A stretch of DNA of 64,000 bases from Pycnococcus provasolii. Its lineage: Eukaryota; Chlorophyta; Pseudoscourfieldiophyceae; Pseudoscourfieldiales; Pycnococcaceae. The notes beneath the pieces were generated by a model. The model was not told the origin of the DNA and made no database searches. It saw only the letters and a list, made by a program, of their open reading frames with translations. A program made the translations under genes and the position numbers. Of the stretch, positions 1,472 through 52,983 are shown piece by piece (position 1 is the first letter of the stretch; each line of letters opens with the position of its first letter). The stretch is from positions 310,001 to 374,000 of the forward strand of contig OW568892.1 in assembly GCA_938743325.2 (NCBI GenBank), read 5' to 3'.

Positions 1472-1492
1472 TTAGGGTTAGGGTTAGGGTTA
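1472..1492 (+). repeat. Interstitial TTAGGG tract upstream of the GT31 gene
   Basis: Three TTAGGG units plus a partial unit, ending 128 bp before the ATG at 1620. Confidence 0.9.
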
Positions 1493-1619
1493 CCAGTTCT
1501 GGTTTCGGGTTTCGGTTGGAATTTTTTCGGAACTGACAGCTCGTTGGATGGCGTTATTCTCGGCGTATTCGAATTTCTGGATTTCATCTTGTCACACAAC
1601 ACAATAATACGTTTTTTTC

Positions 1620-2825
1620 ATGGTAACAACGCGTGTGCTGCTGGTGTTAGCCGTGGTGGTGGTGGTGGTGGTGCTTGCTCTCGATGATGTAACTGGAGTC
1701 TGTGGCTTACAACAACAAGAAAGGTTGCAGCGGTCAGGTGGGCGTGGTCAGGTGGTGGATCCGTTCGTCGCCTGCTTCATCCCCAGCGGACCTGATCCTA
1801 CTGATTACGCGTTTGAAGCCATGCGCACGTGGGGGAGGAAGTGCGACGTGATTCACTTCACGTCCAACAAAGCGGACGCTTCCATCGATATGGTGAAAGC
1901 GCACGATTTACCAATGTGCTCAAAGGAAAACTGGAAATTTCGAATTGCGAGCAACGACATGAACGGTGCATCGCGATGCCGAATTTTTGACCAGATCGCC
2001 TCGGGATGGGTGTTCATGTACGAAAACTATGGCAGTATTGCTCACTACATCATCAAGGTGGATGACGATACGTATCTCAACATTCCTCGTCTCAAGCATT
2101 TTCTGACGAAATACTACGCACCGCACGATAACAAAAAGCATCTCTATCTTGGCATGCCATCCTACGCTCATTTCTACGACGGTTGGTATAACATCGGCGC
2201 GGCGTACATATTGTCGACTGCTGCGCTTCGTGACTTCCTCGTACCCGCCATTCGGTCAGGTGCGTGCACCATTGGCGAGAAGACGCAGGAACCACCGCTT
2301 GCCTGTTCGGATGGCACGCACTGCGATCGCGATGAGCCTATGCAGGCTCGATGCCTAGAGCTCGCCTTCTCGCGCGCACACGACGAAATCAACGTGCACG
2401 GCACGAACTTCCCTCACCCCGAGAGTCCAGGATTCGCTGCCGGCGACGGCCACGGCAACTTGCTCTTGCAGTTCAAGCAGACTCTGCCCAACTTTGACAG
2501 CGGCGACGACATGGAGAAGCTCGCACGTGGCGAACCATACTGCGTTGACGCGTCGGTTGAGACTACGATGGTTGGATTAGGGGGCTGCGCCACGCAATCT
2601 GCTTGGCTCAAGAATTTCGTCGAGGTCGGGCAACTCGGGTGTGCGACTTCCGAACAACAGCTGTGCGCCGATCGGTGCGTGCTCGCCCTTCACCCCATCA
2701 AGAACGTGACACGCATGCGTATGCTGCACACAGCCATGGAAATGTCCGCCACGACCGCGCCCGTCGCGTCGTGCTGGTCTTCCCACAACCCCTACGACAG
2801 AGGCGACGATCTACGTAAAGTTTAA
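1620..2825 (+). CDS. GT31 glycosyltransferase, core-1 beta-1,3-galactosyltransferase (C1GALT)-like
   Basis: A 401-residue type II membrane protein. Residues 4-21 are strongly hydrophobic and form a Golgi signal anchor. The catalytic region follows, with the DxD-type metal and UDP-sugar motif VDDDTYLNI at about residues 147-155 and, further on, the typical block YNIGAAYILST. The C-terminal half is Cys-rich, as in C1GALT1, which adds galactose to GalNAc-Ser/Thr. GT31 has many acceptor specificities, so the donor is probably UDP-galactose but the acceptor cannot be read from sequence. The gene is uninterrupted, and the ATG is the first in frame, directly after a T-rich leader. Confidence 0.75.
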   Translation: MVTTRVLLVLAVVVVVVVLALDDVTGVCGLQQQERLQRSGGRGQVVDPFVACFIPSGPDPTDYAFEAMRTWGRKCDVIHFTSNKADASIDMVKAHDLPMCSKENWKFRIASNDMNGASRCRIFDQIASGWVFMYENYGSIAHYIIKVDDDTYLNIPRLKHFLTKYYAPHDNKKHLYLGMPSYAHFYDGWYNIGAAYILSTAALRDFLVPAIRSGACTIGEKTQEPPLACSDGTHCDRDEPMQARCLELAFSRAHDEINVHGTNFPHPESPGFAAGDGHGNLLLQFKQTLPNFDSGDDMEKLARGEPYCVDASVETTMVGLGGCATQSAWLKNFVEVGQLGCATSEQQLCADRCVLALHPIKNVTRMRMLHTAMEMSATTAPVASCWSSHNPYDRGDDLRKV

Positions 2826-3530
2826 AGGTAGGAATCTCTTTGATAGACTAACTAAGGTTAGTAACTCACCGTTTCCGCCATGGCAAAGAACCACGAAAGG
2901 TTATGACAAGAATCTCTCGATCGATGGGCTCTGGCAATTCTTTTTTCACACTTGTTTGGCTTTGGCTTGATCTCTCCGTTGCAAGCACGGTCAAGTCTCG
3001 AGAACTCGAGAGGAGAGATCACCGTCTGCAGAGACAGACCTCTCCAGGAGACCAGGACCAGGCTGCCAGGAGGTGTCTCCCAGGAGGAACCTTAAAGTTT
3101 ACCACCCAAGTCACCACCCACCTCACCAGTGACCAGTGCGGCAAGCTCCTACTGTACCTGGTCAAGTCCACAACAACTGGGCTGGTAAAATTTACAACCA
3201 AAGAGCAATATCATACCCGTACTAAAAATAACGCGTCTCATACATACCAAAACATAACGAGCGATAGATACCGGGTAGCGGATTTGAGTGAGCTCTCTGG
3301 CCTGCCGGTGCGTACTGTAAACTAAATTAACGGCCACCTCCTCCCTCCTTCCAGCTCGCTCTCCGGCGCCACGGCCACGCCCCTGTTGAGCACCTCTCGG
3401 CGGGACCCGCAACTCGTTATTAGAGCCGAACAAAATAACTTCGGCCTTAAGTTGGTTGGGCCAGCGAGTGAGCGAGTGAGTGAGTGAGTGAGCGAGTGAG
3501 TGAGTGAGTGAGCGAGTGAGTGAGTGAGCT
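2826..3530. other. Intergenic region ending in a (GAGT)n array
   Basis: No convincing gene. A pyrimidine/purine-mixed, CCAGGAGG-rich stretch near 3040-3095 is followed by a (GAGT/GAGC)n array at about 3464-3528 that runs straight into the start of the next gene. Confidence 0.6.
3464..3528 (+). repeat. (GAGT/GAGC)n tetranucleotide array
   Basis: About sixteen 4-bp units, mostly GAGT with periodic GAGC, ending two bases before the ATG at 3531. It supplies an in-frame TGA two codons upstream, which fixes that start. Confidence 0.9.
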
Positions 3531-6500
3531 ATGGCGGACGCCGGTGACGCCGGTGACGCCGGTGACTTGCCTCCTGAGCCTTCTTCGATACTCGCGCACT
3601 CCATACTATTGAACTTCTCGGCGTCGTTGAAGTTCTTGTATAAACCTGTGGTGGTGGGGGCTGCCGACGCGGACGACGACGAAGTGAAAGAAGGTGTCGA
3701 AGCTGTTAAGGGAACCACCGACGCGAAGGACGTGCCTGAGTCCTCCTCCTCACCTGAAGAAGACTCGTCGTCGACAAACGTGTCGTACAGGCTTCACGTG
3801 TCGTACTTGCTCTTCAGTACAGACGACATTGCCAATGCCACCACCTGGGAGCCGCTCACAGACGAACCGCTTGTGATCAACCCCGGCTCCTCCTCCGACG
3901 ACGACGACGTCTCCACGTCGGAGTCGTCATATGAAGGGCACTCATCCAAACTCCTCGAAAACGTTGACGAAGACTATGTGCGCAACATCGTGGGAACGCA
4001 GGAACAACACGCACTGAACGGAACGCAGCCGTGCACCATCGCCATCAAAGTCACAAGAACACCCGCGGATGTCGACGACCCGTCATCCTCGGAGGAATTT
4101 CCAAGTTGTACATTCACCATGGACGCCACGCCTCTTCTGCTGGGAGAGACGAACGTCAAGCTCACGTTGTCAAACGGAAACCCATGGGAAGCCGCGGACG
4201 ACGACGAGGTTCTGCCATTCCCACCACGTGCATCGCCAAAGCTCGCAGAGGAAGTCTTCGGCGCGCGATGCGAAAACGCAGTCTTCGCCGTCGCGCTCAC
4301 AGAGCCGCCAGCGGAGCCTGAAGCCAAAGATGACGGCGAAGAAGTGACGCAGGCGGAACCTCAGCCAACCACCCTCCTTCCCCTTGGGCTCGCTCTGCAC
4401 CTCAACCCCGTCGTCGTGCGGCCGCTCGCCGCACGGTTCCTTCCCGACTTGCCAGCAACCACCGAGCAGCTCGACGGCTTTTGCGCACCCGTCTCCGTCA
4501 CCTACGCGCTGCCGCTCGCTCCCGCCGCTTCCGCAGCTGGATACCTCAAGGAGTGCCGCCACGTCGCCACCGTCACCACGCCGTGGACCGGCGAGGATGG
4601 CCCGGACGAACCGCGCATGCGCACGGCGCTCTTTGGAACGGCGGACGTGTACTTCACATGCGACCTGGACACGCACGCGTTGTACGAAGGACTGCGAAAT
4701 CATCGCGTGGCGCTCGAGGTCCACGACCGCTCGAAGATGGAAGACCCGCCGATCGACCTGAGCTGGAAGACCGGCGGCATCCTTCCGAGGCAGGAGGGGG
4801 AGGAACTCGGCGGCGGCGAAGAGGAGCAGGAGGAGGAGGAGGATTTGCCGCCGCCACCTCCCGCCGACGATGCCGAAAAGGAGGGTGAAGGCGAGGAAAA
4901 CAACCACCACGAGGAGGAGGAGGAGGAGGAAGACGAGGGCGATCCCGCGTATGGGCGCTCGGAGTTCGCGTGCACGGAGCTTGTCACGAGCAAATTGCCA
5001 GGAACGCACCGACTCGTGCTTCGGCAGCAAATTGCACCGTACACCACCGTCAAAGGTGGCCTTCAGGTTGGGCAGAGCTTCGACTGGTACTCGAGACCCG
5101 GAAGATACGGGCAGTGCCGTTCGACACTACAAATCGAAATTGCGTCGGCGCAGCCGATCGTGAAAATGGACGAAGTGCCGAGGCCGTACGAGCGCGTTGC
5201 CTTCATTATGCAGTACGACGACACCGAGCTTCTTCTGGCTCTCGAGCAACTGGTGCGCTCACGCAATGCCACGACGATGGGTTTTGAGGGGACGGAGAGC
5301 TACATCCTGCAACTGCTGAACACCTACAAGACGGGCGAGGAAGAGGAGCGCAACGATCAGCTTGATATCCTCACCGGATTCCACCTCATTGATGGGCGCA
5401 TCAGAATCGTTGTCCTCGAGGGTCTCGGTGCCGGAGCGATTCGCGTGCCCAAGCCACCCGTGGAAGGCGAAGCCGAGGGCGAAGACGAGGCTTCCGCGCC
5501 GCCCGCGAAGGAGCCGAGCGGCGAGGGTGAGGAGGAGAAGCCGATTGAGTACGATTACGTCGACGGCGCGATGGTGGACGTGTACGCGATCGTGAGCTCG
5601 TTTATCACTCGGACGGACAAGCGCCGTCACATTCTGATGAACCCGCGTATTCGCTACGATCGACGACTCTACGTTCCACTCGGACTTGACCTGCAGCGCC
5701 TGAAGCTCCGCGAGAAGCTGAACCGTATCTGCGCAAACGCACACGTCTTTGCGGGAGGCATGGTCCGCAAACTCGTTCTCGACTCCCTGAAGAAGATTCA
5801 GAAACTCCGCAGTGTGCGTTTCCTTCGCCAGGTGGATCGCATGAACCTCCTCCCCACGAGCGAAATGCTCGTCTACCTTTACAAAAAGTTTGGAGGCGCA
5901 CTAACGAAGGACGACATCTTCGGCACTCCCCTGCCCGAGCTAGAGGAAGAGGAGGAAGAGGAGGAGGACGAGGAGGAGGAGGAGGAGGCAATCGCCGCGG
6001 CCGCTGCGGCGGCGGCAGCCGCGGGTGTTCCGCCGCCACCCCCGAAGCCGAAGCGCGTTTCAAAGAAGGGGTCACAAAGCATGACAAGTCTAATGCGCAA
6101 TCCCGCATACGTCGCCGAGGTGGCGCGACGTGCTGCCGTGCGCGACGTGCGTGACTGGGAAACGGAGAATATCGACGCGATCGATCAGCTTGAAGACATG
6201 GTTGTCCCCGATATCAAGCGAAAGTGGCAGGAATGGAATCCCATCCGAACACACCTTGGGAGCGAGACGCTCGCAAAGTACGGCGTTGACCTTGAGTCGG
6301 AGGAGGCGCAAGCTGCCGCAGAGGCGGAGGCGGAGGCGGCAGCACAAGCGTACGTACCGCCAACGACATACCCGCACCCAAGCCAATTCAACTGGCCTGC
6401 GGCACGTGATCCGATCGAGTACAAATCGCACCCGAAGCGGCCAACGGATGGTCGTATCATAGAACTTCAGGAGCCTTGGGTGGAGAACGAGAATCACGGC

Positions 6501-7013: not shown

Positions 7014-7116
7014 CCGATTCCCTCCCATTCGTTTTCAATATCCCAACCACTTTTTCATTGCAATATTAGTACGAAGCATCGGAATAAGGTATTACAGAAA
7101 GGGGAGGGAGAGTCAC

Positions 7117-9474
7117 TTAGACTGGCGATTCTCTCAGGGGGGGATTGTGCACGGGTGATACGCTTGCGCTGGCCCTATATGGCACATGACCAACCCTAAA
7201 TGACATGACACGCGTTTCCAAGGTTTTCGTCTTCTCCTGATCTGTCGTCGATTCCTCCGTCTTGCTGTCGCCGCCTTCGTCCAAGGAAGTTGGCTGTTTG
7301 GAGAATACATTGGCAAAGCTCATGATCATCGTGATGAACCTTTCAAACAGATCCTCCTGTACAGTCTCGTCTTTTTGAGACTTTTTCTGCTTCACAGACT
7401 CGCTGATACTCTGCTCGAAGAGACTTGTGACAGAGGTGAGGGCGTATGCGAAAGTTCCCAGACCTATAATGACGTAAAGGTACCACAAAGGATAGTTCGA
7501 CTCCTTGGGCGTATAGTCGCCAAGGCCAATTGTCGTTAGTGTGATGAAGGTAAAGTACAGTGCCTCCGTGTAGTTCCAATCTTTCTCTGAGATCCAGAAG
7601 AACATTGACCCCGAAATAAACACACCGATGCCGAGGAAGCAGCCTGCATAGAGCTTCGTGCGCTCGACGAGCAGAACACGATCCGCCTCAACAAGTCTCC
7701 GAACCTCGCCGAGCAGCGCGATCCCCTCAAGCTCGTCGAGTCTTCTGTCGCCGTCGCGGTCGAATGCCTCAAAGGCGAACTCGATGAAGTCGTCTCGACC
7801 ACCAATCATTTTGTCCGTCACGCCCATGAAATCCATCACCTGCAGTAGCACCGGCTTGACTCGCTCGAAATCCTGGCCAAATTCCGGGTCCCATCCGTTC
7901 TCGACGACAAGCCGCCTCCACTCGGCGATAACTTTCGACTGGCGCACTTCGATCGCATTGCTCGACCCCGCGATCTTTCTGAACGACTCGTACGCTTTCA
8001 CCATCGCGGTCGCGACGGCGTCGATGCATATGGACGAGAGCAGCGACAGCGCGAAGCCGAAGAATGCGAGGAGAGGGAAGCCGAGGATGACGATGATGAG
8101 CCGGCTTTCGTCCGAGGTGGGCGCGAAGTTGCCGTACCCGATCGTCGTCAGCAGCGTGGCGCAGAAGAAGCTGCTTCCGTACCACGACCAGTTCTGGTCT
8201 TGCACGACGGCCTCGACGCGCTCCTTCCAGCCGATGTACACGGCCGCCGCCTGCACGAAGCGGTTGTACTCCGGGTCGTCGTCCGCCTCGATTTCCCTGT
8301 ACGTCAAGCCCGCGATCGGTTTGTCGAGCAGCGCGCAGTTCGGGCACTCGGGGTTGGGCTCCCGCAGGCACGCGCGGTCGAAGTACAGCGGGTTCGCCTT
8401 GCTCTCGAGGTAGCGCGCGCACTTGCTCACCTGCGCCGAGCTCGGCTGCACGAGGCGGCACATGCCGTAGCACCTGTGAGGCGCCGCCTTGAACTCCGCG
8501 TCCGTGCAGTGGTCCGTCAAGTTGCGGTAGTGGAGCATCTGCAGGTCCGTGTCCACGTACAGCGGGATGTCCTTGTACACCTGGTCGAAGAGCGCGAGCG
8601 TGGCCTGGTACACCGTCGCGTTGTACTCCACCAGCGTCACGTTCTCGAACCAGCCCGTCGCGACTTCGTACGCGTGCATCTGCTCAATCGTGGCGGGCTT
8701 CACCTTCTCGCCAAGCGGAAAGCACGCCTTGCAGTCGTTGTCGATACGGCACGCCTTGTAGTGTACCGAACTTTCGTCGTAGAAGTGTGACGAGTGAAAC
8801 ACAACCCCGTACAGGTTGAAGTAGCGCGTGATGACAACTTCGCGCAGCTTCGTCGCGAGCATCTGTTCTTGGGCCATTCTATTCCTTTCGAGTGGCGACT
8901 CGACGCTCTTGACGAGCGCGGCCATGACGAAGCATATCATTGTTGTGGCTAGAAATGCGCTGACGAGGCGCACAGATTGCCTGACGACGTTACGCTTCGC
9001 CGCCTGCTTGGCAGCTTGCTCCGCCTTTGCGACTTGTTCTGCGTGTTCTTCTGCTTGTTCTTCCTCCGTGAGCGAGACATCCGACGTCGTCGACGATTTG
9101 CTCAACGATTTTCTCTTTTGCCAGTCATCGAAGTTCGGCCCAACGACTTGCACGCCCCCAGTTGTTGAATATGTCTTCTTCACCACTGGCGAAGGCGGTT
9201 GTTGTGCTTTATTGTTGTCGCCGTCGCCAATGTTGTGTGTCATACTTTCTTCGTCTCTGTCTTTCGACTTACGAGAACGCTTCGAGTACTTTTTCGAAGA
9301 ACTTTTAGAACTGCTGTGTTTGCTCATATCGCCGCTGTGTGTTTCCTGCGAAACAGGCAGAGGCACGACTTTCGACGACGACGACGACGACTTGCTGCCA
9401 GCACGTGTCCACGTCAACGTACCTTCTCCGCTATCCGCCAACGTGACGTCTCGAGAGCTCGACATTGACGACAT
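7117..9474 (-). CDS. Two-pore-domain potassium channel with EF-hand in the M2-M3 linker
   Basis: 785 residues from the ATG at 9474; the in-frame extension upstream of it has no ATG. Order: a Ser/Lys-rich cytosolic N-terminus; M1 at about residue 172; a very long Cys-containing loop of some 230 residues; first pore with selectivity filter TIGYGN at about 444; a linker with an EF-hand loop DRDGDRRLDELE at about 569; then M3, the second filter TIGLGD at about 648, M4 and a charged tail. Two filters of TIGxG type define a K+-selective tandem-pore subunit that would dimerise. The single EF-hand suggests Ca2+ control, but plant TPK channels carry EF-hands after pore 2, so this position is unusual. 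The membrane (plasma, tonoplast or ciliary) is unknown. Confidence 0.85.
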   Translation of the reverse strand: MSSMSSSRDVTLADSGEGTLTWTRAGSKSSSSSSKVVPLPVSQETHSGDMSKHSSSKSSSKKYSKRSRKSKDRDEESMTHNIGDGDNNKAQQPPSPVVKKTYSTTGGVQVVGPNFDDWQKRKSLSKSSTTSDVSLTEEEQAEEHAEQVAKAEQAAKQAAKRNVVRQSVRLVSAFLATTMICFVMAALVKSVESPLERNRMAQEQMLATKLREVVITRYFNLYGVVFHSSHFYDESSVHYKACRIDNDCKACFPLGEKVKPATIEQMHAYEVATGWFENVTLVEYNATVYQATLALFDQVYKDIPLYVDTDLQMLHYRNLTDHCTDAEFKAAPHRCYGMCRLVQPSSAQVSKCARYLESKANPLYFDRACLREPNPECPNCALLDKPIAGLTYREIEADDDPEYNRFVQAAAVYIGWKERVEAVVQDQNWSWYGSSFFCATLLTTIGYGNFAPTSDESRLIIVILGFPLLAFFGFALSLLSSICIDAVATAMVKAYESFRKIAGSSNAIEVRQSKVIAEWRRLVVENGWDPEFGQDFERVKPVLLQVMDFMGVTDKMIGGRDDFIEFAFEAFDRDGDRRLDELEGIALLGEVRRLVEADRVLLVERTKLYAGCFLGIGVFISGSMFFWISEKDWNYTEALYFTFITLTTIGLGDYTPKESNYPLWYLYVIIGLGTFAYALTSVTSLFEQSISESVKQKKSQKDETVQEDLFERFITMIMSFANVFSKQPTSLDEGGDSKTEESTTDQEKTKTLETRVMSFRVGHVPYRASASVSPVHNPPLRESPV

Positions 9475-9729
9475 CTGATGCAAAGCACGAGGCCGAGAAA
9501 AAAACAATGCTGTGCGAGGCAAGTCTTGAAAGCAACTTTTGCAAGTTCTCGAAACGAAACGAGAACCGGCCGGGGGTCGTTTGACTCTCTTTCAAGATAG
9601 AAAATTGCTCGGGTAGTTTTTTTTAGTACTACTGGTTTCCACCGGCTGTTTCTTGCAGGTCGCAGTTGGCCAGTTGGGATCCAAGGCTCGTCCTGTCCCA
9701 ACCACGGACTCGTCAAGGCGGGACCCGTC

Positions 9730-9890
9730 GACTTTGGTCGCAGGCGCAAGAAACAGCGGACCCGGGGTCTCGGCCAGGTGACTCGGCCTGGTCGCAAGCG
9801 CACAGCGGGCGACTTTTGTCGCAGGAGAAAGAAACAGCGGAACCGGGCTGCCGGGGACTCCGCCTGGTCGCAGCCGCAAGGCGCATGGCG
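9730..9890 (+). repeat. Two imperfect ~80-bp tandem repeat units
   Basis: The block that begins GACTTTGGTCGCAGG at 9730 recurs as GACTTTTGTCGCAGG at 9811, and the following CGCCTGGTCGCA-type segment is also repeated. The units are diverged by a few bases. Confidence 0.75.
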
Positions 9891-10162: not shown

Positions 10163-10218
10163 AACCCTAACCCTAACCCTAACCCTAACCCTAACCCTAA
10201 CCCTACCCCTACCCTACC
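10163..10218 (-). repeat. Interstitial CCCTAA tract upstream of the GH15-like gene
   Basis: Six to seven perfect CCCTAA units decay into CCCTAC variants. The tract ends about 65 bp before the ATG at 10283. Confidence 0.92.
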
Positions 10219-14786: not shown

Positions 14787-14834
14787 TTAGGGTTAGGGTT
14801 AGGGTTAGGGTTCGGATTAGGATTAGGGTTCGGG
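14787..14834 (+). repeat. TTAGGG tract between divergent genes
   Basis: Four TTAGGG units followed by degenerate copies (TTCGGATTAGGATTAGGG). It lies 44 bp upstream of the GNAT-ankyrin start and about 90 bp upstream of the next plus-strand start. Confidence 0.92.
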
Positions 14835-17201: not shown

Positions 17202-17858
17202 AAGTGCGTACGCAGAATCACTCCACTCACCTTGGAAGCAAGGTCAAAGCAAGGTGAAACATACACGAATGAATGAAGACCGACCAGTCTGTTGTTGTTA
17301 CTATGGTAAGAAAAAGAAAGGAAATAACGTGTGTTGAATGAATGAACGTAGAAAGAGACCTGTCATCAAGAATGTGCAACCTACAGCACTTCTTCTTTTC
17401 ACGCACGCATATACCTAGAGCGATACATACACGTGACACGTCAAGTAAGTTAAGTGGAACCTCATTCTGGACACACACAAGAACATCCTCGCATGCATGA
17501 CCCTGTCTCTGTTGAACAACAATAACACCTACCTACCCTTATAGAAGAGGTTCACGGGTTCATTATAGTCTATTATGTTGGCACCTGTGATATTTATTTG
17601 ATGAAATCCAATCCAATCCAATAATCACGCATGCGAGGCCTTTATATGTGAACTTGTTTCCCACCTGGACCACCGGTCAAAAGGCAAAACCACCACAGAG
17701 GCACAGACTGACAGTTGAGAGAAGAAGATGCCCCGTGGCCGTGGGGAGAAGAAGAATGGTCACCCTGGGCATGCGTTAGGGTTTCCACTAACCCTAGATC
17801 GGATTCCCTTTCCCTCTCCCACCACAAACCGACAGAAATAAAAGTGCACGCCGCCGCC
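17202..17858. other. Intergenic region upstream of Sen34
   Basis: No gene supported. It holds GAATGAATGAA-like runs near 17335, and a back-to-back GTTAGGG...CCCTAG pair at 17775-17797, about 60 bp before the Sen34 start. Confidence 0.6.
17775..17797. repeat. Inverted TTAGGG/CCCTAG pair in the Sen34 upstream region
   Basis: GTTAGGGTTT followed by CACTAACCCTAG: two telomere-type units head to head. Confidence 0.75.
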
Positions 17859-21708: not shown

Positions 21709-22033
21709 CGTAGGAAAACGCGGCGTCGGGAAATGAAAATCAAATGCGCGTGCGGACGAAATGCCGGTAAAGCCTGCTTCGCCAAACAAATGAGAAAACA
21801 GAACGAACTTTTTAAAGGCGCATTCCAGGCAGCCCCCTCGGGAAACCTCCTTGCAGCAGAACCTGGCCTGGAGGGAGAGAAACGGCTGTGACGGGAAGGC
21901 TTCTTGATCATTCAGAACTCAGAAGGCTCGCCAGGTGCCAGGGAAGAAAGCCCGAGCCCGAGGGAGAACCCCTGGAGAACCCTAACCCTAAGGTTGTTGG
22001 AGCCTGAATGTATATAAAATCATAGTAAAGACT
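21709..22033. other. VPS35 upstream region with CCCTAA pair
   Basis: Short intergenic stretch. Two CCCTAA units lie at 21979-21992, close to the 3' end of the THEP1-fusion gene. No other feature is seen. Confidence 0.6.
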
Positions 22034-23455: not shown

Positions 23456-23817
23456 GGCACGGTTCACCTGGTTGAAAAGTCAAAAGTGCTCTGTGAAAAA
23501 AGAATAGTCAAATTCACAAGTCTGTATCAAGCGTGTGGTGGAAAACACGTCCCGGAGGAAATATCGCAAAGCGAAAAATCAAACCGGCGTTCCCGTTAGG
23601 GTTAGGGTTAGGGTTAGGGTTAGGGTTAGGGTTAGGGTGAGAGGATTAGGGTTGTACCTTAATGGAATTCTAATTGCCAGTCTGTGCCAGTGTAAATTTA
23701 AAGGCGAATATTCGTTCTTGGCTGAACTTTAAAAGAAGTGCATTTTTTTAATGAAAGACCTTTGCTTCGTCACATTTTCCTGATTTTTATTTTATTTTAT
23801 TTCAATAAAACGATATG
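23456..23817. other. Intergenic region between two minus-strand genes
   Basis: Apart from the TTAGGG array at 23596-23654 it is A/T-rich, with a TTTTATTTTATTTTA run near 23790 in the 3' flank of the leucine-rich repeat gene. Confidence 0.6.
23596..23654 (+). repeat. TTAGGG array upstream of the THEP1-fusion gene
   Basis: Seven perfect TTAGGG units (23596-23637), then a GTGAGAGGATTAGGG variant. Confidence 0.95.
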
Positions 23818-30084: not shown

Positions 30085-30182
30085 CCCTAACCCTAACCGA
30101 AACCCAAACCCTAACCCGAAATGTATTCCGAAAGGGTAAACTGGTCAGAACTCAGAAGAGAAGGTTGTTAGGGTTAGGGTTA
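30085..30182. repeat. CCCTAA and TTAGGG tracts upstream of V-ATPase c''
   Basis: Degenerate CCCTAA units at 30085-30117, then TTAGGG units in the other orientation at 30168-30182. Confidence 0.85.
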
Positions 30183-31142: not shown

Positions 31143-31640
31143 CACTCGGGTGGACGTGGACTGACAATCAGTCAATCAACACACACACACGAATACGTGA
31201 TAAGGACGTCCAGTACCAAACCTAACGTCGACTACGAAACCTATCGTGAACAAAACGTAACGTGGACGAAACCAGTGATGAAGACACCACCACCACCACT
31301 ACTATGAGTAATGTGACTGAAAGAAATGAGGCTCCGGAGTGGAGAGAGAGACATAGCCTCTCTAAGGAGCTACATGTTCCTCAGACACAAGTACAAATAC
31401 AAATGTGCTCCTGGAACATGAAGGGCCCCCAAGGGATGACTTGAAAGGTTCGAGCACCTGCATTTCTTATCATTATTTATTTAGTAGGGAGAAAGAGCTC
31501 CATAAGATGTCCCGAACGAAGCCTTCACAGGTATATAATGTCAATGTCGTCCCGTCCCAGCCGAACACCAAACCAGTGCCAGCAGAAAATCCAAACGCAA
31601 AAAAGGGGAAAAACCCAAAAACCCTAAAAAGTACTCCCGT

Positions 31641-31679
31641 AACCCTAACCCTAACCCTAACCCGATCATAACCCTAACC
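31641..31679 (-). repeat. CCCTAA tract between divergent genes
   Basis: Four CCCTAA units and one more after a short break. Confidence 0.9.
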
Positions 31680-34291: not shown

Positions 34292-34368
34292 ACCCTAATG
34301 CCCTAACCCTAACCCTAACTCAGTTCTAACCCTAACTCAGTTCGAACCCTAACCCTAACCCTAACTCA
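34292..34368 (-). repeat. CCCTAA tract between divergent LSm3 and EED genes
   Basis: Groups of CCCTAA separated by a CTCAGTT spacer that itself recurs three times. It lies 94 bp from the LSm3 start and 81 bp from the EED start. Confidence 0.9.
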
Positions 34369-34448: not shown

Positions 34449-35924
34449 ATGATGGAACTGCCCTCAGGTGGTGGTGGTGGTGGTGGTGGTGGTGGTGGTG
34501 GTGGTCATGTCAGGTATGTCTGTGTCGACTCCGTGCGTGAAGACCACGAAAAGCCGCTCTACGGTATATGCTTCAACACGTGTGACATGAGACACGCGAA
34601 CGTGTTCGCCACCGTCGGGGATCGACGCGCATCCATATACCGAGCACACGCCGTCAACAGGGACGGAACGACGATGGACGCCAACGCCAACGCCAACGCC
34701 GCAGCCGCGGGGAACTCGTGGAGCGCCGACGACCTCAACCAGCCTATGGAAACGTCAAATCCTGACCCGCCGTCATCAGCACAACGCCAGCCGACCATCG
34801 AGTGCCTGCAAGTCTACGTCGACGAAAATCCAGACGAGCACTTCTTCTGCTGCACATTCACGAGAGACGTTCACGACGCCGACCAACCCATACTGTGCGT
34901 CGGTGGAGAAAAGGGGGTCATACGAGTGCTCGACTGCCACACGTGTGAGCTGAGGTGCTCTCTGTTCGGACACGGGTATGCCGTGAACGAGGTGAAAATA
35001 CACCCAAGTCGACCAAGCCTTCTTCTGTCTGCATCTAAGGACGAATCTCTCAGGCTGTGGAACATACACACGCAGACTCTCGTTGTCGTGTGCGCCGGCG
35101 ACGGTGGGCACAGGTCGGAGGTGCTTTCCATCGACTGGCACCTCGACGCCGCGGCGAATGGGAAGTTCGTGAGCTGTGGAATGGACAATGCGCTCAAGAT
35201 CTGGAGCCTGAAGAAGCACAACGCGCTTATGGATGCCAGCGAGACGTTCGACGCATTCGGCGATGCCGCATCTCGCGGCGACAATTACGACGACGACGAC
35301 GACGACGACGACGGCAAGCGTGCTAGCAAGCGCTCGAAACGCCCGTCGCTCTTTCCCACGCGATACGTCAGCCGCCCAATATTCAGCACGACGAAGGTGC
35401 ACTCGAACTACATCGACTGTGTTCGATGGTTTGGCGACCTGCTGCTCAGCAAGAGCGTGGATTCGAAGATCTTGCTGTGGCGTCCTGACGAGAAGGGTCC
35501 AACGAAGCGACGGGGTGACGTGCGCGTACTGCAGGAGTTTCAATTCGAGCAGTGCAATCTGTGGTTCATCCGCTTCAGCCTCGACCCGAGGCTTCGACGG
35601 CTTTGCATCGGCAATCGGGTTGGCACGATGTTCGTCTGGTCGGTGCCAGGCACACGAAATGGCGGTGGCGCCGGCGCTGCGACGTCAGATGACATGGCGC
35701 CGCGCTCGTCGTCGGGACGTACGAGGAGCGTGGAGGATCTCACGGCAGGTCGTACATCAACGGGCGAGGCTGTGGTCTATGCGCCAGCGCCGCTGGTGAA
35801 GCTCAAGACGCAGCAGTGCAAACTTCCTATCCGACAGACTGCCATTTCGAGTGACCTGAGCATTGTTTTGGGTGTTTCGGAGGATGGGACCATCTGGCGC
35901 TACAGTAACGTCAGCAGCGAATAG
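34449..35924 (+). CDS. EED: Polycomb PRC2 WD40 subunit EED/FIE/ESC
   Basis: 491 residues, a WD40 propeller. Family-typical segments are EDHEKPLYGICFNTCD near residue 36, ILCVGGEKGVIRVLDCHTCE near 150, GHGYAVNEVKIHPSRPSLLL near 176, SASKDESLRLWNI and SCGMDNALKIWSL. EED binds trimethyl-lysine and holds the H3K27 methyltransferase in an active form. A poly-Gly run opens the protein, and an acidic loop (D-rich, near 281) plus a basic stretch interrupt the blades. The presence of this subunit implies PRC2-type silencing in this organism, though the methyltransferase is not in the window. Confidence 0.93.
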   Translation: MMELPSGGGGGGGGGGGGGHVRYVCVDSVREDHEKPLYGICFNTCDMRHANVFATVGDRRASIYRAHAVNRDGTTMDANANANAAAAGNSWSADDLNQPMETSNPDPPSSAQRQPTIECLQVYVDENPDEHFFCCTFTRDVHDADQPILCVGGEKGVIRVLDCHTCELRCSLFGHGYAVNEVKIHPSRPSLLLSASKDESLRLWNIHTQTLVVVCAGDGGHRSEVLSIDWHLDAAANGKFVSCGMDNALKIWSLKKHNALMDASETFDAFGDAASRGDNYDDDDDDDDGKRASKRSKRPSLFPTRYVSRPIFSTTKVHSNYIDCVRWFGDLLLSKSVDSKILLWRPDEKGPTKRRGDVRVLQEFQFEQCNLWFIRFSLDPRLRRLCIGNRVGTMFVWSVPGTRNGGGAGAATSDDMAPRSSSGRTRSVEDLTAGRTSTGEAVVYAPAPLVKLKTQQCKLPIRQTAISSDLSIVLGVSEDGTIWRYSNVSSE

Positions 35925-41053: not shown

Positions 41054-41619
41054 CCCGTGTCCGCCCAATACATCACAGCCGACACCTTCCCGCCCCCGGA
41101 CTCCCGCGGTCACCCACGAGAGCCCGGGCGGATTCGTCTGCCTGCGGCCGGCACGGTCCCAGCGACGCCAGCGACCGTGAGTGCGACTCACGTCCCCTCA
41201 CGGGGCTGGCGCCCGCTTTCAGCAACCTGTAATATCCAAAAGAAAGTAGGAACCGTTGATGCATATGAACGTACCCAGAACCCCTCCCCACAACCAAGGG
41301 CAAGGACGAAGAGGATCGGTTCGAGGAGGACCACAACCAAGGGGCCATCATGGGGGAGAACTGCCAGTACTGTTTTTTGTTTTACCCGAACCCAGTAACC
41401 CTAACCCTAACCCTAACCCTAACCCTAACCCTAACCCTAACCCTAACCCTAACCCCATTGTTGTTGTTGTTGTTAATCTCCTTGAAGAAGACTTCTGGAA
41501 GGAAGGACCCCAGAGGCCCAGAGGATCTGCTTTGCTTTCACCGTCCCCTAGGTGGCCTCGGGGATGCGTCCATTCTCATTCTCATTCTCAAAACACAACA
41601 ACAACACTCCACTCCTACG
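41054..41619. other. RPN13 upstream region
   Basis: Contains nine or more CCCTAA units (41397-41455), a short (GTT)n run just after them, and CATTCT direct repeats near 41570-41590. No gene is seen. Confidence 0.65.
41397..41455 (-). repeat. CCCTAA array upstream of RPN13
   Basis: Nine perfect CCCTAA units, the longest perfect array in the window, ending about 165 bp before the ATG at 41620. Confidence 0.95.
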
Positions 41620-42711: not shown

Positions 42712-42746
42712 AGATGATGTAGTGTTGTTACGTGCAACTTCTTTTC

Positions 42747-45823: not shown

Positions 45824-46139
45824 TGAGTTCGGGGTTTAAAAAAGAATGTGGGACGAAAAACCCCGAGGGGCAAGGGAATCCCCGAAACGCGGAAAACGAG
45901 TCTGGGGATACCGGAATTCTCTTTCCGGAAGCCCCCTGGGGGCAAGGGGAGAGTGTGTACTGTGTGGGGATTCGGATGTGGGTGGGCCCCAGATCAAGGA
46001 ATAGGCCGTGCAGAGCCGCACAAAAAACTGTACAAAAAACACCCGGGTTGTGGGTCCGGTGGGTGGGAGAATACGTCCTGGCCCCTCTCTCTGGGCGGCG
46101 GCATCGATCGGGCCATCATAAATATATTTCTTTTGCACC
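45824..46139. other. ATP sulfurylase upstream region
   Basis: G-rich sequence with two GGGGCAAGGG-type blocks near 45878 and 45950; no TTAGGG array. No gene is seen. Confidence 0.6.
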
Positions 46140-47432: not shown

Positions 47433-47709
47433 GCGCGTTCGTCGCTTTCGTTGATTTGACGATAGAATTGAGGGCCAGTAGGAGAAAAAAAAAAACTACA
47501 AAATCATTTACACGGGTAAATAGTAAGAGAAAATACCTAAGATCGCTTATCCACGTGATTTACATACAGTACTTCGTCCAGCGGTCGTTCACTCACACCA
47601 TTCACATTCTCACCGTCCAGCCCACTGACTTAAGCAACAACAACAACAAAAAGGAGTAAACATGTTCAAACCTATTGTTCAATTCAAATTGTAATGAATG
47701 GTATTACTT

Positions 47710-50700
47710 TTATGGCATGACGGCAAACTCGCCGATGCACTTTGCAATTTCGATCGCCTTCTTCTCCAGCTGGTTGGCGTATTTCTCCTGCTCCGCCGCC
47801 ATCGCAGCCAGCTCAGCCGCACGGTCCTGCTTCTTCTTCTTCTTCTTCTTCACTTTCGGACCCTTGCCAAAGAAGTGCGCAATCGCAGCGGATGCGAGAC
47901 AGAGCGTGTCGAATGTTACTGGCAGCTCGCGATGCATTGGTCTTCTCACGTCGATCTTCACGTCGTACGCATAGCTCGACGCGAATGCCGCTCCGGCACC
48001 GCCATGGCTTAGCAGTTGATTGTAGCTGTTCGCGCCGCTGCCTCCAAACGGAATCGTCTGCTCGGCGTCGCAGTCGGCAAATCCGAGGCACGTGCACATA
48101 AATGCAATCTGCGCCGAGCGCTGCAGACGGAGCAGCTTCGCCTGGTCGCCCATTACCTTCTTCGTTAGCACCTTCGTACCCTCCGCCGCGTTGAACATGA
48201 ACTGCATGAAGCCTTCGAACGTATGGCCCGACTTGCGCCGGAATCCTTCAATCACGTTCTGCTTGTTCGACTCGGTTGTCAGCAGCGCCATCTGCACCGA
48301 CTGCCTCCTTGCCACCTGCAGCACAGCGTAGGGATTGAACAACAGACCCACCTTCCGGCCGATAATTCTTATGCCGAAGGACATCGCCTGCGGACGCTGG
48401 TCAAGCGCCGAGGCGTCATTTTGCTCCCCGCCACGGATGAGAGATCCATCAAGGCTGACGACGACAACGCGACGCAAACTCTCCGCCACCGCGTCAGCTG
48501 GCTTGACACCAACGCTCAGCGGCCCGCGCGCAGTCATCGGACGCTGGCTCATTGTAATGGCAGGCTCGATACCCTTGGAAGCTGCTGACACGTTCAGGTC
48601 GAATGACTCGTCCACCTCCTCGCGATGAGCCTTGGACTCCGTCGTGTCGAAGTCGTCATCCGTCTCCACGCCGATACGGCCGTCGGGATTTGCGCATAAT
48701 CTGGCCAGCATAGCGCACGCGCCTACGAACTGCAGGTAGCTCAAGCCCTCCTCGAGGGTTCCCTGGCGCAAGCCACCTGTGAGGCTCGGGTCCAGATCCG
48801 GGCGGTTGAACACCGCTCGGTAAGCCTGCTGCGCCGCAGCATACGCGCGCTCGCCACGCCGAGTCGAAACACCATCGTAGCCACTTTCGTAGCCACTTGC
48901 CGCACCAGCGCCGTCCGAGCCAGAGCTTGACGTCTCGAGTCCCCACGGCGTGGCATTCGACGCGTCCATCGCAAATGCCAGGAAAGAGCGCTCTGACATG
49001 AACTTCGGGTAGGTGACATCAACCGGACGCGGCGGCGGCGGCGGCTTGGGCTTTTTGCTCTTCTTCGCCTTCTTCTTCTTCTTACCCTTGGCGCCGAAGA
49101 AGGGCGTCGTCTCGTTGAGGAGGTTGGAGTAGTATCGGAAGATGGCGCGTATCGTGTCGTCGTGAGTGCGGAACATCACGTCCAGGCGGCACGCCTCGCC
49201 CTCCGAAACGTCCGAGAAATAGGTGCGCCAGAACATGTGAGCGTCGCGCGCGTTCAGTGGTTCATATCCGCCGCCGAAGTGTGCCGGCAGGCGTGCGAGA
49301 ACGCAACGCGCGGTTTCAGGGCCCTCGATGGCTCGGAAGCGAGCACCGGGGACACCCACCATACTCCACTTCGCGGCACTTCCTTCTGGCGAGATCACTG
49401 TATCGGCCGCGAAGACGCTGCCAAGTCGCATCAGCGCATTTCGCAGATGCTGCAACTCTGGCGGAATCACCGGCGCCACGGCAACGTCCTGGCTGATCTC
49501 AGGCGTGAAGATGGACAAGCCGTTGCCAGCCTTCGCCGCTATTCCCGGAGTTGCCGTCACCTGCTTGCCATCCTCGTTCGTGACAATTCCAACGGAAGTC
49601 ACGCAGACTACGTGACCAAGATGTGGCAGTGCGCGCAGGAACGCCGTGAGATCTTGAACAGTTGCGAAGCCAGCCTCGCGTTCCATCTTCAGGCGCTTTT
49701 TCGAAATAATACAGGCACGATACGCAACCACCAGCGGCATCTTCTTGGGAAGAGAAGCCAAGATCGATTCGAAGTCGTTCGAGGCATCGTCCCCCTCTCC
49801 ACCCGGCTTCATCATGGCAAGGTTGCCATGTCGCAGTGCAACGAGCGACAGATCCGTATCCTCCTCCACCGTCGGCATCGACGACTCCAGTGGCTCCACA
49901 GGATTTCCAAGCACGCGATAGCCTCCGAGTTGCATCGTGAAACCGTAGGAGTTGTGCTTCTCCGCCAGTGGAAGTTCGGCAACCGCCAACTCCTTGCCAC
50001 TTTTCAGCTCGTCGCCGGTGATTTCCGCAGCCATGCGTGCCGCGCTCCTTTCGATCGTCGCCTCCGAAACTCCCTCCTCGTCGGGTACCATCGAAAGATT
50101 CTCCATCGAAATGTTCACATCTGTCTCCTTCTTCGCCGGACGGCGCACCGCGCGTCGCCTTGACGTGTGCTCTTTCGGCGCCTCGATCACCAGAGATGGG
50201 TCGCCGCCGACTGTGAACGGAACCACCGTCGGCATTGCGTGCGGAAGACGGCCTGCATCATTACGATCCGCTGCCTTGCGGAGCAGGTTTCCGAGGTCAC
50301 TCGTCTGGTCGGCCATCCGTGCCTCGAAGTACATCTCCGACAGTGCCTGGTAGGCGCTCGCGCGCTCGCGCCACTTTCGCTCGCGCACCGTTTCGCGTCG
50401 CCCACGTAGCTGGTATGACACCTCATCCGCCGCCTCGCGGAATAGGTCAACCCAATCTCGAGGATGCTTGTCGCGGTGGCGATCCACCGCGGAGGTGGCG
50501 GCACGTCCCATTGCGCGCGCGTAGACGTCCTGTGACATGCGAACCTCTTCGAGGCGATCTCGCAGGCTTCCCACAAACACAGCGTACCGTGATCGCTCCA
50601 CCTCCCACGCTCGTAATGCCTCCTCGCGAAGAGCCTCCGAAAGCGTGAGCGCGTCCCGACGTGCGGTCGCCGCGGCGAATTCCTCCCGTTCCTTCACATC

Positions 50701-51924
50701 TGCATAAGCTAGCGATACCATCTTCTCAGCCTCCTTCATCTTCGCTTCCGCCTGCTCGATGAGAGCCTGAGCCTGCCTCTCTCGCGCCTCGGCACGCTCG
50801 AGTGCGGGGATGAGATCTTTCTCAGCCTTCTTGCGGCGCTCCTCCGCCGCCTTCGCAGCCTCGAAAGCCATATTGCGCTCCTGGATCGCTTTGCGCTTTT
50901 GGCGCAATGCATCTTCTCGCGAGACATTCGCGTCCAGGTACATGTCGTGCAAGGTGTGCACCGTACGTTGGCTTTCAACACGCAGAAGATCGAGAAGGCA
51001 GCCGTACTGGCCGCAGACAACACCAATGTGGCGGCACGCTGACACGAATCCCGCCTGCGTCACCGCCTGGCGGTCGAGAAGCTCCTGAAGATTGCGCTCG
51101 CGCTCCTTGCTGTCGTGCTCGTCGCGCTGAGCGGCTGACATCTTGCTCGGGCTCATAGCACGCGGGTTTGACCTCAGCGCTTCCACGGAGGCTGCATGAC
51201 TTTCCATGCGAACCTGCTCGAAGCCGATGTCCAGAGACTTGGCAAGGCCGATCGCGGCCTCTCGTCTCAGGTTTGGCGCATTTACCTTTGGCGACACCGG
51301 CGACCACAAGAGAGCCTCTTCCGAATTCACGTCTTCGCCAAGCGGTACGACGGGCACCTCCACGCCAAGCGAGTTCTTGCCACTTCCGACAAAGCGCGCG
51401 TAGTGTGCTCCGCCGAGTGGGTCGCCCTCGTGTGGTCCAATGAAGAAGCCGCGCGCTTCGACCTGCTCCTGGAAGGTGGACCCCATCTCTGTTGACGGGA
51501 TTCCGCCGCCCGCGAACATCGCGCCCGCAGACTGCGCGCGTGGTGGTGCGACACCACCAGGATACGATGCATCCATCGACGGCTTGGGTGGCTTTCTTGC
51601 AGCAGCGGCGATGGCCGCCTCGAGTCGCCCCGCTTCCGACGACTGAGTCATCGCGCGCGTGCCAGCTGTCACGGCCGACTGCGGCCTTGCCGTGGGTGCC
51701 GTTCCCGTGAACGCCGAACCCGGCCGTCTCGCTGCCGTCGGCAGTGCCGACTGTGGCCTTGCCAACGCGCCGCCGTTGTTCACTCGCCCATACAAAGCCA
51801 GGCCAGCCTGCTCCTGGAGTGCCTTGCGCTCGCTTAGCGCCGGCGACATGTGCCTCCGTGCCACAGCTGCAGACATCGGCCTTTCCCGCTTTGACTGCAC
51901 GTTCGTTACGACGAATTTATCCAT
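47710..51924 (-). CDS. Large orphan protein with coiled coil and RPxSA motifs, possibly ciliary
   Basis: 1404 residues in one exon from the ATG at 51924. The N-terminal 150 residues contain repeated ARPQSA/RPMSA-like motifs, common in axonemal proteins. An Ala/Glu/Lys-rich coiled coil spans about 330-450. Residues 770-940 form an ordered domain (PLVVAYRACIISKKRL, then FWRTYFSDVSEGEACRLDV), followed by a Lys/Pro linker near 943-970. A second ordered region (about 980-1380) has SERSFLAFAMDAS, LSYLQFVGACAMLARLC and SAQIAFMCTCLGFADC, helical pairs that resemble degenerate EF-hand folds. I do not recognise the family; axonemal placement is a guess. The frame is unmistakably coding. Confidence 0.6.
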   Translation of the reverse strand: MDKFVVTNVQSKRERPMSAAVARRHMSPALSERKALQEQAGLALYGRVNNGGALARPQSALPTAARRPGSAFTGTAPTARPQSAVTAGTRAMTQSSEAGRLEAAIAAAARKPPKPSMDASYPGGVAPPRAQSAGAMFAGGGIPSTEMGSTFQEQVEARGFFIGPHEGDPLGGAHYARFVGSGKNSLGVEVPVVPLGEDVNSEEALLWSPVSPKVNAPNLRREAAIGLAKSLDIGFEQVRMESHAASVEALRSNPRAMSPSKMSAAQRDEHDSKERERNLQELLDRQAVTQAGFVSACRHIGVVCGQYGCLLDLLRVESQRTVHTLHDMYLDANVSREDALRQKRKAIQERNMAFEAAKAAEERRKKAEKDLIPALERAEARERQAQALIEQAEAKMKEAEKMVSLAYADVKEREEFAAATARRDALTLSEALREEALRAWEVERSRYAVFVGSLRDRLEEVRMSQDVYARAMGRAATSAVDRHRDKHPRDWVDLFREAADEVSYQLRGRRETVRERKWRERASAYQALSEMYFEARMADQTSDLGNLLRKAADRNDAGRLPHAMPTVVPFTVGGDPSLVIEAPKEHTSRRRAVRRPAKKETDVNISMENLSMVPDEEGVSEATIERSAARMAAEITGDELKSGKELAVAELPLAEKHNSYGFTMQLGGYRVLGNPVEPLESSMPTVEEDTDLSLVALRHGNLAMMKPGGEGDDASNDFESILASLPKKMPLVVAYRACIISKKRLKMEREAGFATVQDLTAFLRALPHLGHVVCVTSVGIVTNEDGKQVTATPGIAAKAGNGLSIFTPEISQDVAVAPVIPPELQHLRNALMRLGSVFAADTVISPEGSAAKWSMVGVPGARFRAIEGPETARCVLARLPAHFGGGYEPLNARDAHMFWRTYFSDVSEGEACRLDVMFRTHDDTIRAIFRYYSNLLNETTPFFGAKGKKKKKAKKSKKPKPPPPPRPVDVTYPKFMSERSFLAFAMDASNATPWGLETSSSGSDGAGAASGYESGYDGVSTRRGERAYAAAQQAYRAVFNRPDLDPSLTGGLRQGTLEEGLSYLQFVGACAMLARLCANPDGRIGVETDDDFDTTESKAHREEVDESFDLNVSAASKGIEPAITMSQRPMTARGPLSVGVKPADAVAESLRRVVVVSLDGSLIRGGEQNDASALDQRPQAMSFGIRIIGRKVGLLFNPYAVLQVARRQSVQMALLTTESNKQNVIEGFRRKSGHTFEGFMQFMFNAAEGTKVLTKKVMGDQAKLLRLQRSAQIAFMCTCLGFADCDAEQTIPFGGSGANSYNQLLSHGGAGAAFASSYAYDVKIDVRRPMHRELPVTFDTLCLASAAIAHFFGKGPKVKKKKKKKQDRAAELAAMAAEQEKYANQLEKKAIEIAKCIGEFAVMP

Positions 51925-52941
51925 GCCGCGTTCCGTGAACAGTTCGCTGTGTCGTTGAAATGAAGTGTGTGAAAGGGCGAGGTTTTCTTGTTAGCGGCGA
52001 ATGCGTGTGTTTTTGGTTGTTTTTCAAGCCGAGCAAGAAGATGGGAAAGAAGAAGAAGAAGAAATCTCTACCCGTCTGTCCTCGGCAGCGGCTGTATACA
52101 TGGCCTAACATCTAGTGCAAGGTGCACGCTGACATCCACCTCGCCGTGCACTCTCCTTCTTCTCGGCGAGGTTGGCGACTGACTGGCATTGGCTGCTGCA
52201 TTGCCTGCTGCACCCCCACTACTGTCCCTCCCTAGCGCGTATGCCGTCGTGGGCGGCTTCAGAGGCGGCGGCGTCGAGCGAGCCGAACCATTCGATGAGC
52301 CCGGGCGCATCATACCCAATTGGCCTCAAGCAACGTGCACAAGCACTGAGCAACGACACTTGCGAAGTGCGCAATGGCCCTTCGAAGGGTTTCCCCCTAT
52401 TGGCCGCGAACCCCGAAGCGAAGAAGAGGCCGCGTTGAAAAAAGGGCGTTCTTAACTTCCCCTCCCCTCCGGCCGTTCCCCTTCCCTTCCCAGGGCTCCT
52501 CCGAGGGGCTTCCGAGAACTGCTCTGAGAACAGCTCCGAGAAGAAGAAATGTAATACGGTCAACTCTGGACTTCTTCTCTTCTCTAGAGGTAAGGTCTTA
52601 GTATGGACACCTCTCAACTCGAAGAGATCAGGGTGGTCAACTCTCCTACCTTTACAGTTTACAGTACCCATGTCCATGGTCCATGGTCCATGTGGGTAGG
52701 TAACACGTGAATGGGGGTAACCCTGAACCTGAAGGGGGGAGGCTTAACTTACATAGTACTACTGTGTAGTTCTTACACACTGTATGCCTGCCAAGTCAAC
52801 AACAACCTCAGGCTTCCTTCAGGCTTCCTTCATAAGGCTGAAAGCACGAGGAAGGCCGAGGGGGGGTCCCACACCTCACAGGTGCTGGCTGCCCCTTCGC
52901 TCATCAGTCATCAGGTGTTGTCATCAGGGGACAATTTTAAT

Positions 52942-52983
52942 GTTAGGGTTCAGGCATTCAGGTTAGGGTTACGCGTGGGTTAG
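52942..52983 (+). repeat. Degenerate TTAGGG units
   Basis: Two GTTAGGGTT units about 20 bp apart, then GGGTTAGG. Confidence 0.7.

What the first reader, a model, noticed from the sequence alone, without database searches (positions are those of the whole stretch)
1472..52983. TTAGGG/CCCTAA mini-arrays sit only in gene-upstream DNA
I see twelve clusters: 1472, 10163, 14787, 17775, 21979, 23596, 30085, 31641, 34292, 39616, 41397 and 52942. Each lies in intergenic DNA upstream of at least one start, most within 50-300 bp; 31641 and 52942 are about 0.5-1 kb away. None falls in the gaps between converging genes (7.0, 11.8, 19.1, 29.2, 33.6, 36.0, 42.7 and 56.8 kb) or in coding sequence. Both orientations occur. 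Known: plant telo-boxes (AAACCCTAA) in promoters bind Myb/TRB proteins that recruit PRC2, and this window itself encodes the PRC2 subunit EED. Inference: these arrays are promoter elements, perhaps nucleosome-free or TRB-bound, rather than leftover telomeres.
Basis: partly seen in the sequence, partly recalled or inferred. Interest (0 to 1): 0.78.

Follow-up and report, generated by a model that had tools for sequence, protein, structure and literature searches.

The report
Telomere-repeat mini-arrays near algal promoters
A tiny marine green alga carries thousands of short copies of its chromosome-end repeat between its genes, somewhat more often just ahead of gene starts, and also has a protein of the land-plant family that binds such repeats, hinting that this way of marking promoters may be older than land plants.

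Summary
The window is contig C32 of Pycnococcus provasolii CCAP190/2, a prasinophyte green alga. The arrays are real: 34 TTAGGGTTAGGG matches, 0 expected. Ten of the twelve listed clusters are tandem arrays; 17775 and 52942 hold isolated units only. Genome-wide there are 2,942 exact arrays of two or more units, telomeres included, with 23 clusters in 204 kb of internal C32.

"Only upstream of genes" is too strong. In 324 kb, 2 of 27 classed clusters lie in convergent gaps, 4.9 expected, p=0.085. A whole-genome count of start contexts 80-110 bp from arrays (474 against 304 on the TTAGGG side) shows a moderate excess over random noncoding DNA; the CCCTAA side (312 against 249) does not.

The best new support is a TRB-type protein in this genome: telobox Myb plus linker-histone domain. 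Two trebouxiophytes have such proteins too, although published surveys place TRB origin in streptophyte algae. EED and a Su(z)12-type VEFS box are encoded. Binding, transcription effects and PRC2 recruitment are untested. Main rival: neutral telomerase or slippage products tolerated in open promoter DNA.

The parts
1472..1489 (+). (TTAGGG)3, 131 bp before candidate ATG 1620 of a + ORF
10165..10200 (-). (CCCTAA)6 in a divergent gap, 83 bp before candidate ATG 10283 of the GH15-domain gene
14787..14828 (+). (TTAGGG)4 plus degenerate units in a divergent gap, 44 bp before candidate ATG 14743 of the ankyrin/GNAT-domain gene on -
17776..17796 (+). one TTAGGG and a nearby inverted CTAACCCTA, no tandem array; 78 bp from TTAGGG to candidate ATG 17859 of a tRNA-intron-endonuclease-domain gene
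21980..21991 (-). (CCCTAA)2 in a tandem gap, 272 bp before candidate ATG 21708 of the Vps35 gene and about 45 bp past the end of the next gene
23596..23651 (+). (TTAGGG)7 plus one spaced unit, 141 bp before candidate ATG 23455 of an NTPase-domain gene on -
30085..30179 (.). two short arrays in opposite orientation, 50 bp before candidate ATG 30035 of an ATP-synthase-C-domain gene on -
31622..31677 (-). (CCCTAA)3 with flanking single units, mid divergent gap, 480 bp from ATG 31142 (-) and 472 bp from ATG 32149 (+)
34293..34364 (-). two (CCCTAA)3 blocks and single units with CTCAGT-containing linkers in a narrow divergent gap between candidate ATG 34198 (-) and EED ATG 34449 (+)
34449..35921 (+). 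EED (PRC2 subunit), 99% identical to PPROV_001013600
39619..39722 (-). (CCCTAA)2 and four scattered single units, 162 bp before candidate ATG 39457 of a membrane-transport-domain gene on -
41399..41452 (-). (CCCTAA)9, longest in window; inside the open frame of the Rpn13-like gene, between candidate ATGs 41350 and 41620
52943..52968 (+). two spaced TTAGGG units, about 0.9-1.0 kb from either start; not a tandem array

Best explanation
The arrays are interstitial copies of the alga's own TTAGGG telomere repeat that lean towards promoter-side intergenic DNA and serve as clustered binding sites for a TRB-type single-Myb-histone protein encoded in the same genome. The Myb domain would bind the TTAGGGTTA register and help set promoter chromatin, as telo-boxes do in land plants. 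SHOWN: the arrays, their number, their predicted noncoding place, a moderate excess near start codons, and a TRB-type protein with Myb and linker-histone domains. INFERRED: that this TRB binds the arrays in cells and that this affects transcription. SPECULATIVE: recruitment of PRC2 (EED and a VEFS box are present, nothing more).
For: Telomere is TTAGGG: contigs C3 and C10 start with long (CCCTAA)n. 2,942 exact arrays genome-wide, telomeres included. Whole-genome start test: TTAGGGTTAGGG then ATGKC at 80-110 bp 474 against mirror control 304, ratio 1.56; random noncoding positions in the sample give 1.15 (95% 1.02-1.30); at 260-290 bp the ratio falls to 314/246. TRB gene: Myb E 6.9e-9 and linker histone E 1.9e-9 in one 419-codon frame on C37, starting MGAPKVKW with VDLKDKWRN; a separately deposited P. 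provasolii protein P0121 is 99% identical over the whole query; its Myb matches solved TRF2 (2e-8), TRF1 (4e-7) and yeast TBF1 (4e-4) domains. Array ends favour the TTA...TTA register: 15 of 43 start and 15 of 43 end there, about 7 expected. PRC2: EED, VEFS box E 2.7e-22.
Against: Position is a tendency, not a rule: 2 of 27 classed clusters in convergent gaps, depletion p=0.085-0.107; distance to the nearest start differs only weakly from random noncoding positions (14 of 28 within 300 bp against 34%, p=0.064; Mann-Whitney p=0.14). The CCCTAA-side count, 312 against 249, is within the noncoding null. The per-array count on the TTAGGG side (77 against 45) beats the null at p=0.02 but not its upper bound (p=0.085). 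Units per kb, arrays included, are 3.2 in upstream-300 DNA and 4.4 in other noncoding DNA (which includes contig-end telomeres). Orientation is inconsistent: 20 of 28 antisense in the sample, but the larger genome-wide excess is with TTAGGG in the sense direction. The array-end result was post hoc (best of six registers). No binding, expression, chromatin or strain-conservation data. TRB may serve telomeres alone.
Confidence: 0.45

Rival explanations
1. Neutral telomerase products: telomerase occasionally adds TTAGGG units at breaks during repair; breaks and tolerance are highest in open, noncoding promoter DNA, and arrays then decay. TRB binding, if any, is a by-product.
For: Exact match to the telomere unit; arrays short (2 units in 17, 3 units in 14 of 41 sampled); none in coding predictions; ends at ...GGGTTA could mark a template boundary.
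Against: No empty site could be shown. Blocks with repeated CTCAGT linkers at 34293-34364 need later duplication. Start-proximal excess on the TTAGGG side is above random noncoding DNA.
Confidence: 0.33
2. Ordinary microsatellite slippage starting from chance TTAGGG sites, tolerated in noncoding DNA.
For: Other short tandem repeats also sit in noncoding gaps, and spaced or composite forms exist.
Against: One hexamer, the telomere unit, has 32 of its 41 runs in classed noncoding gaps, far more than any other hexamer among the 25 repeats listed.
Confidence: 0.12
3. Arrays are carried by transposable or duplicated elements.
For: Two sampled arrays lie in a 115-nt inverted repeat with partial copies elsewhere (L017), and two are copies through an inverted duplication of at least 1,065 identical nt (L019).
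Against: With 400-bp flanks and telomere units masked, seven window arrays (1472, 14787, 21980, 23596, 30085, 34301, 41399) have no second copy in the sample; 10165 and 31643 have local hits only and 39619 a 48-bp hit in L028. The sample is about 1% of the genome.
Confidence: 0.05
4. The TRB protein serves telomeres alone and another factor, or none, acts at promoters.
For: Telomeres carry the same repeat; two other telobox-like sequences exist (C8, C9).
Against: TRBs of land plants are reported at both telomeres and telo-boxes (PMC10167121, PMC12616469; passages).
Confidence: 0.05

Closest known systems
Land-plant telo-box (AAACCCTAA) promoters bound by TRB proteins, recruiting PRC2, PEAT or JMJ14 (Arabidopsis, Physcomitrium)
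   Same: Telomere-unit motif near gene starts, TRB-type protein and PRC2 subunits in the genome; in moss the telo-box is enriched in the 50 bp upstream of the TSS (PMC12616469, passages)
   Different: Here tandem arrays of 2-9 human-type TTAGGG units, about 2,900 of them, in a chlorophyte; binding unproven
Yeast Tbf1 (TTAGGG-binding general regulatory factor at promoters, nucleosome exclusion)
   Same: TTAGGG motifs in promoters with a telobox Myb reader (PMC6410037, passages); weak match of the Myb domain to TBF1 (4e-4)
   Different: Tbf1 has no linker-histone domain (recalled); budding-yeast telomeres are no longer TTAGGG (recalled)
Short interstitial telomeric sequences of vertebrates attributed to telomerase at break repair (recalled)
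   Same: Short exact telomere-repeat tracts at many internal sites
   Different: Here with a moderate lean to gene starts, in a compact genome
Neurospora interstitial telomere repeats that instruct PRC2 targeting
   Same: Internal telomere repeats with PRC2 subunits in the genome (PMC8788455, passages)
   Different: No methylation data here; a promoter lean instead

Membership tests
TRB / single-Myb-histone protein | N-terminal single Myb domain with telobox VDLKDKWRN | tested here: met
   MGAPKVKW...VDLKDKWRNL; PF00249 E 2.8e-9, residues 5-56 of P0121; invariant columns shared with land-plant members
TRB / single-Myb-histone protein | Central linker-histone H1/5-like globular domain | tested here: met
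   PF00538 E 8.8e-10, residues 114-175 of P0121
TRB / single-Myb-histone protein | C-terminal coiled coil | tested here: inconclusive
   A charged C-terminal stretch followed by RPPKKR aligns with that of other TRBs; no coiled-coil or structure prediction was run
TRB / single-Myb-histone protein | Binds telomeric repeats and telo-boxes | not testable with these tools
   Needs EMSA or DAP-seq; the Myb domain is similar in sequence to solved TRF2 domains
Telo-box promoter element | Non-random position close to transcription starts | tested here: inconclusive
   Genome-wide excess of start contexts at 80-110 bp on the TTAGGG side only; sample distance tests p=0.06-0.14; no TSS data
Telo-box promoter element | Enriched at ribosomal protein and translation genes | not tested
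   No search for such genes was made; window targets are mixed
Telo-box promoter element | Recruits PRC2 / H3K27me3 | not testable with these tools
   EED and VEFS box exist; E(z) not searched; no chromatin data
Interstitial telomeric sequence | Tandem telomere units away from chromosome ends | tested here: met
   23 clusters in 204 kb of internal C32; 2,942 exact arrays genome-wide, terminal ones included, against 44 chromosomes

The most novel reading that the evidence does not exclude
[quoted passage not shown] Pycnococcus keeps it in an exuberant form, with clustered arrays of the telomere unit at a large share of its promoters acting as a main chromatin-setting element.
Probability: 0.3. 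Interest if true: 0.78.

Novelty: new variant of a known kind. Interest (0 to 1): 0.58.

Why it matters
Two published surveys place the origin of TRB proteins in streptophyte algae (PMC10167121: Klebsormidiophyceae; PMC12616469: Chlorokybophyceae), and the later one says origins may be older and Chlorophyta need study. A TRB-type protein in Pycnococcus, and Myb plus linker-histone proteins in Myrmecia and Elliptochloris, bear directly on that. A unicell with PRC2 subunits, a TRB and thousands of candidate sites would allow a direct test of whether telomere repeats brought chromatin regulators to promoters before multicellular plants existed.

Tried and rejected
A strand preference of arrays was considered and dropped because sample and genome-wide counts disagree. 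A transposon or duplication origin was tested and found for a minority only. Single TTAGGG units away from arrays: 16 in 29.1 kb of upstream-300 DNA, 4 in 16.3 kb of convergent gaps, 38 in 52.5 kb of other noncoding DNA, so no upstream peak for single units. Transfer of TRB from land plants: in the first tree land plants form one group (99/95) without Pycnococcus, with warnings about long branches; in the smaller second tree that grouping has support 35/0, Pycnococcus falls near streptophyte algae (88/93), and holding the five rows P0121, P0122 (unnamed source), P0153, P0162, P0163 together is not rejected (AU p=0.18). Transfer from a streptophyte alga is therefore not excluded. Tetraselmis P0153 has the Myb but no Pfam linker-histone match at E up to 0.1, so it is not counted as a full TRB. 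Four rows (P0137, P0152, P0160, P0161) of 41 were left out of the first tree; the second used 20 rows of my choice. The search that found Myrmecia and Elliptochloris listed 120 of 996 hits, so other chlorophyte members may exist. The first gene-prediction script failed on an integer overflow and was corrected.

Literature searches in whose listings, and in the passages I opened, I saw no report of chlorophyte TRBs or of Pycnococcus promoter arrays: (open-licence PMC papers only; not every listed paper was opened). One review says SMH proteins occur also in red algae, citing Du et al. 2013, which I did not read.
Full report
WHAT THE SEQUENCE IS. The window is G000:C32:310001-374000 of a 32,333,900-base, 46-contig genome. 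Its EED ORF is 99% identical to Pycnococcus provasolii PPROV_001013600, and contig C1 is 1,490,684 bases, the longest-scaffold length given for P. provasolii CCAP190/2, ucPycProv1.2 (PMC11130579, first of three parts of the text read). It is a chlorophyte, class Pseudoscourfieldiophyceae. Contigs C3 and C10 start with long CCCTAA runs, so the telomere is TTAGGG; the paper reports telomeres on both ends of 36 of 44 chromosomes.

THE OBSERVATION. TTAGGGTTAGGG occurs 34 times in the window, none in 100 shuffles; TTAGGG 68 times against 13.3. Genome-wide there are 8,159 twelve-mers and 5,217 eighteen-mers; as each exact array of k units gives k-1 and k-2 of them, 2,942 arrays of two or more units exist, terminal and subtelomeric ones included. 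That is one per 11 kb; the window, with 12 in 64 kb, is richer.

POSITION IN A SAMPLE. I trained a simple codon-position Markov/Viterbi coding predictor on long ORFs of 334 kb (window, neighbouring C32, parts of C9 and C22, six contig starts) and used it to class gaps. It knows no introns and its 5' ends are approximate. Leaving out the C32 start L023 (324 kb), 27 clusters fall in classed gaps: divergent 13 in 45.0 kb, tandem 12 in 28.0 kb, convergent 2 in 16.3 kb; length-stratified shuffle mean for convergent 4.9, p=0.085. For the window alone P(0 of 12)=0.076 by base share. Of 28 clusters 14 lie within 300 bp of a candidate start against 34% of random noncoding positions (p=0.064), with a heap at 44-162 bp (14 of 28) noted after the fact; Mann-Whitney p=0.14. 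Starts facing tandem gaps under 400 bp were not in that start list, so 21980 and 30085, for example, were measured to far starts. AACCCT runs: 41 in 324 kb, 0 coding, 16 divergent, 14 tandem, 2 convergent, 9 at edges; other repeats have convergent shares of 0 to 25% of their classed noncoding copies by unit length, base share 18%.

POSITION GENOME-WIDE. As the places of all arrays could not be read, I counted start-codon contexts (ATGKC; 43 of 121 candidate starts begin ATGGC or ATGTC) and their mirror GMCAT at fixed distance from each array. At 80-110 bp: 474 against 304 on the TTAGGG side, 312 against 249 on the CCCTAA side. Random noncoding positions in the sample give a ratio of 1.15 (1.02-1.30), so 1.56 exceeds it and 1.25 does not. 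Counting each array once in the listed part (C1 to C6:782 kb), TTAGGG side: 77 against 45, p=0.002 against equality, 0.02 against 1.15, 0.085 against 1.30. At 260-290 bp: 314 against 246, noncoding null 1.08. Arrays therefore lean towards starts at about 100 bp; the effect is moderate, and the distance window was picked from the sample.

ANATOMY. Maximal exact runs of 12 bases or more (43 distinct) start at the first T of TTAGGG in 15 and end at ...GGGTTA in 15, about 7 expected each (p=0.003 and 0.002, each the best of six registers); for runs of 18 or more (28) the start bias is gone (6) and the end bias weaker (9, p=0.03). This is the TTAGGGTTA register, which I recall as the TRF-type Myb site. 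Purifying selection on binding sites would give it; so could a telomerase template boundary. The 34293-34364 cluster consists of CCCTAA blocks with repeated CTCAGT linkers, a sign of local duplication after origin. Seven window arrays tested have unique flanks in the sample and three have only local or short matches.

THE READER PROTEIN. Of 80 Myb and 4 linker-histone matches in the genome, one pair shares an open frame: C37:387953-388108 and 388280-388468, 419 codons. From its ATG it reads MGAPKVKW...NRTNVDLKDKWRNL, has a linker-histone domain and ends in a charged segment with RPPKKR. A separately deposited P. provasolii protein, P0121, named only 'transcription factor MYB', is 99% identical over the whole query (strain not shown). 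Other named relatives are land-plant TRB/SMH proteins and, by the source's genome tags as I read them, Chlorokybus and Mesotaenium. Solved-structure matches are TRF2 (2e-8), TRF1 (4e-7), then TBF1 (4e-4). Two further telobox-like sequences lie on C8 and C9 and could not be read. Myrmecia bisecta P0162 and Elliptochloris bilobata P0163, both Trebouxiophyceae, have Myb plus linker histone over the Pfam cut-offs and VDLKDKWR. Tree: core chlorophytes together 99/98, Pycnococcus with streptophyte algae at 88/93, one chlorophyte group not rejected (p-AU 0.18). An origin before the chlorophyte-streptophyte split is the simple reading; transfer is not excluded.

LITERATURE. PMC10167121 (abstract and passages) puts the origin in Klebsormidiophyceae and finds one telo-box enough for binding; PMC12616469 (section 11 and passages) in Chlorokybophyceae, with the remark that origins may be older and Chlorophyta need study. 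[quoted passage not shown] A reference title listed in PMC4924339 says AtTRB2 binds both Arabidopsis-type and human-type repeats. PMC3212954 (passages) treats coordination of mitochondrial and cytoplasmic ribosomal protein genes as land-plant specific.

VERDICT. Real, numerous, genome-wide arrays of the alga's telomere unit with a moderate lean to gene starts; 'only upstream' is too strong. A reader protein of the expected kind exists and is itself the more novel result. Mechanism remains inference.

Noticed in passing
G000:C37:387941-389077 (L036:941-2077): TRB/single-Myb-histone gene in a chlorophyte, outside the published streptophyte range; relatives with both domains in Myrmecia and Elliptochloris (P0162, P0163).
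   Followed up: partly
L019:3500-4564 and 8735-9799 (C32): At least 1,065-nt 100% inverted duplication with 4.2 kb between the arms, reaching the limits of the stretch tested; each arm carries the same (TTAGGG)3 array.
   Followed up: partly
L017:1254-1368 and 1547-1661 (C32): 115-nt inverted repeat (98%) holding telomere-repeat arrays, with partial copies elsewhere in the sample; possible small foldback element.
   Followed up: partly
G000:C22:163745, 175101, 181968: Three linker-histone H1 matches within about 18 kb; the third has an in-frame TGA inside the match.
   Followed up: no
window 53816-56509: Two overlapping long ORFs on opposite strands (880 and 897 aa) in DNA with strong AT and GC skew (0.35, 0.15 at 54001-56000).
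   Followed up: no
P0155, P0156, P0158, P0159: A well-supported group of proteins of unnamed source with MGAPK...VDLKDKWRN Myb and C-terminal PPKKR but no Pfam linker-histone match at E up to 0.1; possible TRB relatives.
   Followed up: no
L023:1282-1719 (start of C32): Subtelomeric tandem repeat of about 66 bp near the C32 left telomere; flanking sequence matches the start region of C10 (L027, 89% over 221 bp).
   Followed up: no
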